Positions 338 through 36,918 of a stretch of DNA of 64,000 nt are shown piece after piece. The stretch comes from Melioribacteraceae bacterium (GTDB lineage Bacteria; Bacteroidota; Ignavibacteria; Ignavibacteriales; Melioribacteraceae). The translations under genes and the position numbers were made by a program. Numbering within the stretch: the first letter of the stretch is position 1; every line of letters begins with the position of its first letter. A model generated the notes under the pieces. The model had not been told where the DNA came from. It worked only from the letters and a program-made list of their open reading frames with translations, and did not search any database. The stretch lies in the NCBI GenBank assembly GCA_016342755.1, contig JAEINS010000003.1:1-64000 (forward strand), given 5' to 3'.

Positions 338-589
338 ATGCTAGGTTCACAAGTTGAAAAAGGGATTAATCCGTTATCTGATTTAATTAGTGATGAAATT
401 TACGATTTACTTGAATCACGAAGTTTAATTAATGAAAAATCTGTTCGTGATTATCAGATAAGGAGAAAATTCAAAGATATGCGTGCAAACGATGTTGGTG
501 CAAGTGAGGCTATTGATATTTTAAGAAATGAACATCCTTATTTACAGTTCGATACTATAAGAAAGATTGTTTATCAAATACACAAATAA
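338..589 (+). CDS. Small hypothetical protein, 83 aa
   Basis: I do not recognise this family. The ATG follows an AAGGGAG Shine-Dalgarno sequence at a good distance, so the start is well supported. The protein is soluble and charged, with no signal peptide or membrane segment. Its second half (about residues 36-83) looks all-helical and ends in a segment, FDTIRKIVYQIHK, that resembles the recognition helix of a helix-turn-helix protein; this is only an impression. The gene stands alone: a strong promoter begins six bases after its stop codon and a terminator follows, so it is probably transcribed separately from the genes downstream. A small DNA-binding protein is the best guess, with low confidence. 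Confidence 0.55.
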   Translation: MLGSQVEKGINPLSDLISDEIYDLLESRSLINEKSVRDYQIRRKFKDMRANDVGASEAIDILRNEHPYLQFDTIRKIVYQIHK

Positions 590-595
590 TTGTCC

Positions 596-624
596 TTGAC
601 AAACTTGTATTGTTAGTTTATATT
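596..624 (+). promoter_or_regulatory. Strong sigma-70 type promoter
   Basis: TTGACA at 596-601 and TATATT at 619-624 are separated by exactly 17 bases, a near-consensus vegetative promoter. Transcription should begin around 631. It lies immediately after the stop of the 83 aa gene and only about 50 bases before a complete intrinsic terminator, so its direct product is a short RNA unless there is read-through into the DUF3098-eutN-dprA genes. Confidence 0.75.
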
Positions 625-630
625 AAAGAT

Positions 631-704
631 ATCTATTTCAAAGATCTTTTGGTCTTTGTATTTATTACGTTAGCCCAGTGTACCCCCCCAACACTGGGTT
701 TTTT
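631..704 (+). ncRNA. Putative 75-nt structured RNA or leader
   Basis: Downstream of the 596-624 promoter the predicted transcript folds into two hairpins. The first pairs 639-646 with 651-658 around a UUUU loop (eight pairs, one a U-G). The second is the terminator pairing 674-681 with 691-698, whose nine-base loop holds seven consecutive C. A run of six T follows at 699-704. No start codon lies within it. It could be a trans-acting small RNA with a C-rich loop, or a leader for the operon at 728. No segment complementary to the terminator arms is visible, which argues against classical attenuation. This is inferred from sequence only. Confidence 0.5.
674..704 (+). terminator. Intrinsic terminator with C7 loop
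   Basis: CCCAGTGT at 674-681 pairs perfectly with ACACTGGG at 691-698 and is followed by six T. It would end both the short RNA started at about 631 and any transcript from the 83 aa gene. It sits 24 bases before the next start codon. Confidence 0.85.
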
Positions 705-727: not shown

Positions 728-991
728 ATGGCAAAACAAATTAAAAAGAAAATAAGAAACGAAAAATCAACCCCTTCTCCATTTAATTTTTACTGGAAAA
801 AAGAGAATGCTTATTTATTAGGTCTTGGAATGGTTATATTAGTATTGGGATTTTTTCTAATGTCAATTGATCCATTTGATAGTTTTCCATCACTAACTCT
901 TTCTCCTATTGTTTTACTACTTGCTTATCTTGTAGTTTTTCCTCTATCTATATTATATAGGAAGAAGAATAAAGTTGAACAAGAAAAATGA
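728..991 (+). CDS. DUF3098-like small membrane protein
   Basis: This is an 87 aa protein with two predicted membrane helices, at about residues 27-45 and 57-75. A charged N-terminus rich in Lys/Arg and a charged C-terminus suggest that both ends are cytoplasmic. The segment FDSFPSLTLSPIVLLLAYL matches what I recall of the DUF3098 family, which is common in Bacteroidota and Chlorobiota and has no known function. The start lacks a clear Shine-Dalgarno sequence; the leader is A-rich instead. Its stop overlaps the next start in an ATGA (988-991), so translation is probably coupled to the eutN-like gene. Confidence 0.7.
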   Translation: MAKQIKKKIRNEKSTPSPFNFYWKKENAYLLGLGMVILVLGFFLMSIDPFDSFPSLTLSPIVLLLAYLVVFPLSILYRKKNKVEQEK

Positions 992-1263
992 TTCTTGCAA
1001 AGGTTAAAGGAAATATTGTTTCTACTCAAAAAAATAAGCACTTAGTTTCCGAAAAACTATTATTAGTACAACCCATTGATTTAGAGGGCAAGTTTATCGG
1101 GAACAAAGATCTTATTGTTATTGATAATCTTGATGCAGGAATTGGTGACAGAGTTATGGTGACACAAGAGGGTGATGCTGTTCAGCAAATTTTAGGACAT
1201 AAAAACGCTCCTGTACATTCTATTATTGTTGGTATAATTGACGGAATAGATATTCAAAAATAA
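988..1263 (+). CDS. EutN/CcmL-family microcompartment vertex protein, divergent
   Basis: This 91 aa protein has the EutN/CcmL (BMC-P) layout. It starts MILAKVKGNIVSTQK (family form: xLGxVxGxVxxTxK), continues with KLLLVQPID, and ends with VHSIIVGIIDGI in place of the usual VDAAIVGIVD. The family forms pentamers that cap the vertices of bacterial microcompartments. The central glycine-rich loop reads IDNLDAGIGDRV rather than the usual VDTVGAGVGE, so this copy is more divergent than the two at 48.2-48.8 kb. It overlaps the DUF3098-like gene by four bases and is followed 14 bases later by dprA. No hexameric shell gene (BMC-H or BMC-T) is present in the window, so a shell role is unproven. Confidence 0.8.
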   Translation: MILAKVKGNIVSTQKNKHLVSEKLLLVQPIDLEGKFIGNKDLIVIDNLDAGIGDRVMVTQEGDAVQQILGHKNAPVHSIIVGIIDGIDIQK

Positions 1264-36396: not shown

Positions 36397-36837
36397 ATGA
36401 CACTAGTAAGATGGAACCCAGCAAGAGAATTATCAAACGTTGAAAGAGAATTTAACAAATTCTGGAATAATTTTGGACTTACGCAAAATGAGGAAACGGA
36501 TAATTCAGTTTGGTCACCTTTAACTGATATTTCTGAGGATAAGGACAATTATTATATTAACACTGATTTGCCAGGTATTTCGAAAGAAAATCTTAAGCTA
36601 AATATTACCGATGGCGAACTTACAATTAGCGGTGAAAGAAATCAGATTAAAGAAGAAAAAGAAAAAACATTTCATCGTATTGAAAGAAACTACGGAAAAT
36701 ACTATAGGAAATTCAATCTGCCAGAAAAAATAGTAACTGATAAAATTGATGCAAAATTCAAAGACGGTCAGTTAATAATTGTAATTCCAAAAGCAGAAGA
36801 ATCAAAACCAAGGGAACTTGAAATAAAAATTAATTAA
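36397..36837 (+). CDS. Hsp20/alpha-crystallin small heat-shock protein
   Basis: This 146 aa protein is a small heat-shock chaperone that holds unfolding proteins. A short N-terminal arm (VRWNPARELSNVEREFNKFW) precedes the alpha-crystallin domain at about 45-135 (DKDNYYINTDLPGISKENLKLNITDGELTISGER is the family core, seen in parts) with the conserved GQLIIVIPKAE at its end and a short C-terminal tail. The start has an excellent TAGGAGG. The gene stands alone between a complex promoter region and a strong terminator. Confidence 0.95.
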   Translation: MTLVRWNPARELSNVEREFNKFWNNFGLTQNEETDNSVWSPLTDISEDKDNYYINTDLPGISKENLKLNITDGELTISGERNQIKEEKEKTFHRIERNYGKYYRKFNLPEKIVTDKIDAKFKDGQLIIVIPKAEESKPRELEIKIN

Positions 36838-36840
36838 AAA

Positions 36841-36876
36841 AAGCACAGGGCTTGAGTAACCTCAAGCCCTGTGCTT
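36841..36876. terminator. Bidirectional terminator after hsp20
   Basis: A perfect 16-base stem (36841-36856 with 36861-36876) with loop TAAC lies between hsp20 and the convergent endonuclease gene. An A run precedes it, so the minus strand has a T tract. It is among the strongest hairpins in the window. Confidence 0.9.
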
Positions 36877-36918
36877 AGTATTTATTAACACTTTTCCTTT
36901 TCATGTGGTCATTTGATA

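What the first reader, a model, noticed from the sequence alone, without database searches (positions are those of the whole stretch)
596..704. Near-perfect promoter feeding straight into a two-hairpin RNA with a seven-C terminator loop
TTGACA-17-TATATT is followed within 50 bases by a complete terminator, so the expected product is a 70-75 nt RNA that codes for nothing. The terminator loop is ACCCCCCCA. C-rich terminator loops that pair with G-rich leaders are known, for example RepG of Helicobacter pylori and the UCCC-loop RNAs of Staphylococcus. Several genes here have G-rich Shine-Dalgarno sequences, such as the GGGG before the TTG-start kinase. Alternatively this is a leader for the DUF3098-eutN-dprA operon, but no antiterminator is visible.
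Basis: partly seen in the sequence, partly recalled or inferred. Interest (0 to 1): 0.65.

Follow-up and report, generated by a model that had tools for sequence, protein, structure and literature searches.

The report
C-loop small RNA conserved across Ignavibacteria
The window holds one member of a previously unlisted family of roughly 75-base regulatory RNAs, found across a whole class of little-studied bacteria, whose C-rich loop looks made to pair with G-rich ribosome sites of genes for exported proteins; it works like known regulators but in a group where I found none described.

Summary
TTGACA-17-TATATT (596-624) leads into a two-hairpin, roughly 75-nt unit ending in a terminator with an ACCCCCCCA loop (672-704). 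The same element occurs at 27 of 29 related DUF3098 loci, and a covariance model finds the family in 95 of 294 genomes of the class, with nothing convincing elsewhere in the phylum. All three helices covary. Some genomes carry up to 8 copies, many solitary or in tandem, so it is a trans-type sRNA and not only a DUF3098 leader. No Rfam family claims it. In the window's family (Melioribacteraceae) the loop's UCCCCCC matches a GGGGGGA Shine-Dalgarno. Genes with that site are 34/43 signal-peptide-like against 77/329 for other genes, and homologues of a secreted HEAT-repeat protein carry it (26/39 genes, against 0/30 in sister families). Counter-evidence: three genomes without a detectable sRNA keep the site in their HEAT gene. 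Best reading: an Hfq-independent antisense sRNA acting on G-rich ribosome sites of exported-protein genes, working like 6C/B11 and RepG. Expression and pairing are untested.

The parts
596..601 (+). -35 element TTGACA
   Evidence: conserved in relatives; in 92 family members 82 have at least 9/12 matches to TTGACA-16/18-TATATT against 23% of shuffled upstreams
619..624 (+). -10 element TATATT, 17-nt spacer
631..704 (+). predicted sRNA (about 74 nt); 5' end inferred from a -10 end to model-start distance of 5-6 nt
   Evidence: covariance model R2 matches 630-705 at 64.6 bits, E 4.1e-11 in the own genome (the window is one of 50 sequences in R2); R1, built without the window or its family, gives 42.2 bits, E 4.1e-6
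639..658 (+). hairpin 1 CAAAGATC-TTTT-GGTCTTTG; its C-rich loop (UCUCCCCU elsewhere in the class) is lost in this family
672..700 (+). terminator hairpin, stem 672-681/691-700
   Evidence: helix 3 covaries
682..690 (+). ACCCCCCCA loop, proposed pairing seed
   Evidence: C run of 4 or more in 85 of 93 family members
699..704 (+). T tract of the terminator
338..589 (+). upstream conserved 83-aa gene, no Pfam or NCBIfam family
   Evidence: conserved upstream neighbour in Ignavibacteriales, not detected at the other class loci
728..991 (+). downstream DUF3098-like gene, the class-wide downstream neighbour of the main copy
   Evidence: (E 4e-4, below the Pfam cut-off)

Best explanation
The locus encodes a stand-alone, terminator-ended sRNA of about 75 nt, a member of a class-wide family not in Rfam 15. 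The strong vegetative-type promoter transcribes it, the terminator ends it, and the rigid terminator hairpin presents a run of C as a single-stranded seed. In Melioribacteraceae that seed (UCCCCCC in most species, ACCCCCCC here) pairs with GGGGGG(A) Shine-Dalgarno sequences and blocks ribosome binding on a set of mRNAs, mostly for exported or envelope proteins, including secreted HEAT-repeat proteins. It acts without Hfq, which these genomes lack. Shown here: existence, conservation, covariation, promoter conservation, multicopy and solitary copies, G6 sites on exported-protein genes. Inferred: transcription, pairing, and direction of regulation (repression).
For: Structure and promoter in relatives; model hits in 96/146 relatives and 95/294 class genomes, only three matches outside the class, all E above 0.003; covariation 17/22 and 22/22 pairs with double changes, 97.2% and 95.8% of cells paired against 83.5% and 75.6% shuffled and at most 47% slid; promoter conserved; solitary and tandem copies, those in tandem each with its own upstream promoter-like sequence in most cases. 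Targets: three paralogous HEAT proteins with GGGGGG in the own genome; 26/39 HEAT genes in the family against 0/30 in sister families; G033, whose sRNA lost the C run, also lacks G6; G6A genes 34/43 signal-peptide-like against 77/329 (Fisher p 1e-12) and against 20/68 with ordinary strong Shine-Dalgarno (p 3e-7); G6A sites that start an exported ORF 29/66 in three sRNA-bearing against 6/42 in three sRNA-lacking genomes (p 0.0015); loop-target duplexes -15 to -19 kcal/mol against -6 for a G3 paralogue; no Hfq in 38 genomes, with positive controls found.
Against: No expression data. G002, G029 and G032 have no detectable sRNA yet keep the G6 site in a HEAT gene. G005 and G014 have the sRNA but no G6 HEAT site. 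The f2 sRNAs also have six C but HEAT genes there lack G6. The 29/66 figure is driven by G009 (20 of 29) and is not corrected for phylogeny. The signal-peptide rule is a simple hydrophobicity test. The own genome has only 19 G6-ATG sites against 12 in the reversed control. Constant synteny with DUF3098 leaves room for a cis role.
Confidence: 0.66

Rival explanations
1. A cis-acting leader or attenuator of the DUF3098-eutN-dprA operon: the promoter drives the operon and the terminator sets how much reads through, perhaps under control of an unknown signal.
For: The main copy is directly upstream of DUF3098 in 27/29 relatives and 19/20 loci in other families of the class, although the upstream gene changes; no other good promoter lies between terminator and DUF3098.
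Against: 18 of 20 further loci carry the RNA without DUF3098, often facing an opposite-strand gene, and three loci carry 2-3 tandem copies. No alternative antiterminator fold is seen. The C runs are conserved, which a plain attenuator does not need.
Confidence: 0.14
2. A protein-binding RNA: the C-rich loops are a docking site for a conserved RNA-binding protein (titration or chaperone), not a base-pairing seed.
For: Loop 1 (UCUCCCCU) is close to invariant over many families while its stem changes; tandem copies would suit titration.
Against: No candidate C-binding protein identified; the G6 sites on exported genes and the loss of loop 1 in Melioribacteraceae fit base pairing better.
Confidence: 0.12
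3. The G6 Shine-Dalgarno of exported genes is an independent feature (translation tuning or slippage-prone tract); the sRNA is real but has other targets.
For: G6 HEAT sites persist in three genomes without a detectable sRNA; GGGGGGA before ATG is also enriched over its reversed control in sister families (82 against 37) and sRNA-lacking genomes (67 against 28), though less than in sRNA-bearing ones (145 against 39).
Against: The exported-gene bias was weaker in the sRNA-lacking genomes sampled: 29/34 against 6/13 of ORFs, p 0.01; the site has the exact complement of the loop.
Confidence: 0.3
4. Just a terminator of the upstream 83-aa gene plus a chance promoter.
For: Lies 83 nt after the stop codon; in family f2 the unit follows that gene with no clear promoter.
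Against: Promoter conserved, hairpin 1 covaries, and the unit persists where the 83-aa gene is absent.
Confidence: 0.03

Closest known systems
6C RNA / mycobacterial B11 (Rfam RF01066)
   Same: Two C-rich hairpin loops, terminator loop C run, extra solitary copies in some genomes (PMC9569102); B11 uses its terminator C loop on G tracts next to ribosome sites, blocks translation and affects envelope glycolipids (PMC12395582); the 6C sRNA is titled as working independent of RNA chaperones (Mai 2019, seen only as a reference in PMC9569102).
   Different: Actinobacteria-specific. The Rfam model scores class relatives at 16.9-20.6 bits against a cut-off of 47 and does not list the window. The window's branch keeps only one C loop.
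RepG of Helicobacter pylori
   Different: Unrelated lineage; the RepG G repeat is phase-variable and upstream in a leader, here the G6 sits at the Shine-Dalgarno itself and is fairly constant at six.
RsaE/RoxS (RF01820)
   Same: UUCUCCC...CCCUUUG stretch resembles UUCUCCCCUGCCCUUUG of the Ignavibacteriaceae members; weak model matches.
   Different: 26.4 bits against a cut-off of 79; the rest of the molecule differs; likely convergent anti-Shine-Dalgarno sequence.
Alphaproteobacterial ar14/ar7 and Burkholderia anti-hemB sRNAs
   Same: Short, C-rich-loop, terminator-ended sRNAs; best sub-threshold Rfam matches of class relatives.
   Different: At most 33.9 bits against 58.8 for ar14; no member reaches a gathering score.

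Membership tests
6C RNA (RF01066) | Covariance model score at or above the gathering cut-off (47 bits) | tested here: not met
   16.9 and 20.6 bits for two class relatives; window not listed up to E 10
6C RNA (RF01066) | Two hairpins with C-rich loops | tested here: not met
   Met in most class relatives, but the window and Melioribacteraceae keep only the terminator C loop
6C RNA (RF01066) | Targets G-rich sequences at ribosome sites | tested here: inconclusive
   Statistical support only
RepG-type G-repeat regulators | C-rich terminator loop complementary to a G tract in target mRNA leaders | tested here: met
   Sequence complementarity and duplex energies; pairing in cells not tested
RepG-type G-repeat regulators | Target G tract varies in length and sets the outcome | tested here: inconclusive
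   G6 in most species, G7 in G009 whose loop also has seven C; no within-species data
RsaE/RoxS (RF01820) | Gathering score 79 bits | tested here: not met
   At most 26.4 bits
ar14 (RF02344) | Gathering score 58.8 bits | tested here: not met
   30.6 and 33.9 bits
Riboswitch/attenuator leader | Always in cis upstream of a regulated gene, with an alternative antiterminator fold | tested here: not met
   18 solitary or tandem loci without DUF3098; no antiterminator in the minimum-energy or centroid fold
Any trans sRNA | Discrete short transcript in cells | not testable with these tools
   No RNA data on hand

The most novel reading that the evidence does not exclude
Melioribacteraceae mark a large part of their exported-protein genes with a dedicated GGGGGGA Shine-Dalgarno that serves as an address for one 75-nt, Hfq-independent sRNA, so that a single RNA sets output of exported proteins across the cell; the wider class uses the same RNA with a second, near-invariant UCUCCCCU loop for another target set.
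Probability: 0.33. Interest if true: 0.75.

Novelty: new member of a known kind. Interest (0 to 1): 0.6.

Why it matters
I found no described sRNA for Ignavibacteria in the papers searched, and this phylum lacks Hfq in the genomes tested, so how it does antisense regulation is an open question. A class-wide, strongly covarying RNA with a ready list of candidate targets makes that testable with one northern blot and a two-plasmid reporter. It is also a further case in which unrelated lineages arrived at the same C-loop against G-rich ribosome-site solution, apparently again for envelope or exported products.

Tried and rejected
Rfam at gathering and permissive thresholds: no member family. Plain MAFFT alignments misplaced the short-loop Melioribacteraceae members, so model R1 was built from the cleaner families and used to realign. 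A genome contigs pattern scan also found C-loop terminators in Pseudomonas and Arthrobacter; these are not in Rfam and were taken as unrelated terminators since they lie outside the class and were picked by a pattern that selects for them. Weak model hit at window 36837-36893 (E 0.27) rejected as chance. A genome-wide G6-ATG count alone is weak evidence, since GGGGGGA is itself a usable Shine-Dalgarno. One viral scan for the exact window terminator: none. Target search for the UCUCCCCU loop of the other families was not done for lack of searches.

Full report
Observation. The window (C28:1-64000 of a 4.73-Mb genome) has TTGACA at 596-601, a 17-nt spacer and TATATT at 619-624, then an 8-bp hairpin (639-658) and a terminator (stem 672-681/691-700, loop ACCCCCCCA, T699-704). 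The strand folds at -23.1 kcal/mol, z -4.7. No ORF of 60 aa or more overlaps it. Promoter-like sites by consensus are no more frequent in this region than in shuffles, so the case rests on conservation.

Conservation. A search with the downstream DUF3098-like protein gave 30 loci. In 27 of 29 relatives the intergenic stretch has a GCCCAGTG-type terminator with a C-rich loop (26 by pattern, plus L013 by model), nearly always with a TTGACAAA-17-TATATTT promoter and a first hairpin of changing sequence; one of these, L018, has lost the C run. L010 and L012 lack it. Pattern hits with names place the window's family (f1) in Melioribacteraceae and f3 in Ignavibacteriaceae.

Covariance models. R1 was built from ten f3 and f2 sequences only; it finds the window at 42.2 bits, E 4.1e-6 over the genome, as the only match there, and hits 96 of 146 relatives. 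R2, built from 50 matches, hits 95 of 294 class genomes (68 of 151 genera) in at least seven further families. In a phylum sample only three matches lie outside the class, all with E above 0.003. On the model-fitted alignments, 17 of 22 and 22 of 22 pairs show changes on both sides, and 97.2% and 95.8% of cells pair against 83.5% and 75.6% in shuffles and at most 47% when the helices are slid. These alignments lean towards the model, but independent folding of unaligned sequences gives the same two hairpins.

Anatomy of the family. Consensus outside Melioribacteraceae: CGACC...CAACAGUU-UCUCCCCU-GACUGUUG...GGUCA-AG-CCCGGCGUU-CCCCCC-AACGCUGGGCUUUUUU. Loop 1 is CUCCCC-bearing in 66 of 93 members and is lost in the window's family; loop 2 has a run of four or more C in 85 of 93. 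The promoter scores at least 9/12 in 82 of 92 members against 23% of shuffled upstreams, and its -10 usually ends 5-6 nt before the model start, so the RNA should begin at the first helix.

Gene context. The main copy lies directly upstream of DUF3098 in Ignavibacteriales and in 19 of 20 loci from other families of the class, although the upstream gene changes. Eighteen of 20 further loci have the RNA without DUF3098, and L156, L166 and L167 hold two or three tandem copies. A cis-only role is therefore unlikely for the family. A cis contribution at the main copy remains possible, since no clear promoter separates the terminator from DUF3098.

Candidate targets. In the own genome GGGGGG-N2-12-ATG occurs 19 times (12 in the reversed control), and three of the real genes are paralogous secreted HEAT_2 proteins. 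Homologues carry a run of six or more G at the Shine-Dalgarno in 26 of 39 Melioribacteraceae genes and in 0 of 30 genes of f2 and f3, which use AGGAGG-like sites. G033, whose sRNA lost the C run, has AGGAGGA there. Against this, G002, G029 and G032 keep G6 with no sRNA found by a relaxed model search or by a C-loop terminator pattern, and G005 and G014 have the sRNA without G6 HEAT sites.

Beyond HEAT genes, GGGGGGA-N1-8-ATG is 145 against 39 reversed in eight sRNA-bearing Melioribacteraceae, 67 against 28 in eight sRNA-lacking ones, and 82 against 37 in eight f3 genomes. ORFs behind such sites in sRNA-bearing genomes are signal-peptide-like in 34 of 43 cases by a simple rule, against 77 of 329 genes from random stretches (p 1e-12) and 20 of 68 with strong ordinary sites (p 3e-7). 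At the level of sites, 29 of 66 start an exported ORF in three sRNA-bearing genomes against 6 of 42 in three sRNA-lacking ones (p 0.0015; G009 contributes 20). Loop-target duplexes are -15 to -19 kcal/mol. No Hfq was found in 38 genomes while the controls were found.

Known relatives. No Rfam family reaches its cut-off for any member tested. Sub-threshold matches go to ar14, ar7, anti-hemB, RsaE, sX13 and 6C, which share the C-rich-loop trait. The closest in working are B11/6C, whose terminator C loop pairs with G tracts by ribosome sites (PMC12395582), and RepG (PMC8295292). It works like them; it is not a member of RF01066 by score.

Verdict. A real, class-wide, undescribed sRNA family of a known functional kind (existence about 0.93). 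Action by the C loop on G-rich ribosome sites is likely (about 0.66), and the exported-protein regulon is a well-supported but unproven hypothesis.

Noticed in passing
338-589 (+): Conserved 83-aa protein with no Pfam or NCBIfam match, the upstream neighbour of the sRNA throughout Ignavibacteriales (SVRDYQIRRKFK...YLQFDTIRKIVYQI).
   Followed up: partly
L172, L188, L189, L305 and relatives: A multi-copy family of small secreted HEAT_2 proteins widespread in Ignavibacteriales; Melioribacteraceae members have a UCCGGGGGGA-like ribosome site.
   Followed up: yes
L017, L023, L031 (family f2): Here the sRNA follows the 83-aa gene with no clear -35, so it may be a 3' UTR-derived RNA in this family.
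   Followed up: no
L156:2449-2735, L166:2455-2854, L167:2498-3210: Tandem arrays of two or three sRNA copies; two of the arrays lie between genes unrelated to DUF3098.
   Followed up: partly
L018:338-428 (G033): sRNA whose terminator loop lost the C run (GCAAGCACTGC); its HEAT gene has AGGAGGA instead of G6.
   Followed up: yes
L063-L124 (Pseudomonas, Arthrobacter, Paenarthrobacter rows): CCCAGTG..CCCC..CACTGGGCTT terminators recur in Pseudomonas and Arthrobacter species and are not in Rfam; may be other C-loop RNAs or plain terminators.
   Followed up: no
988-1263 (+): A lone EutN/CcmL shell-vertex-type gene between DUF3098 and dprA, kept in relatives (L157, L166); no other microcompartment gene was looked for.
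   Followed up: no
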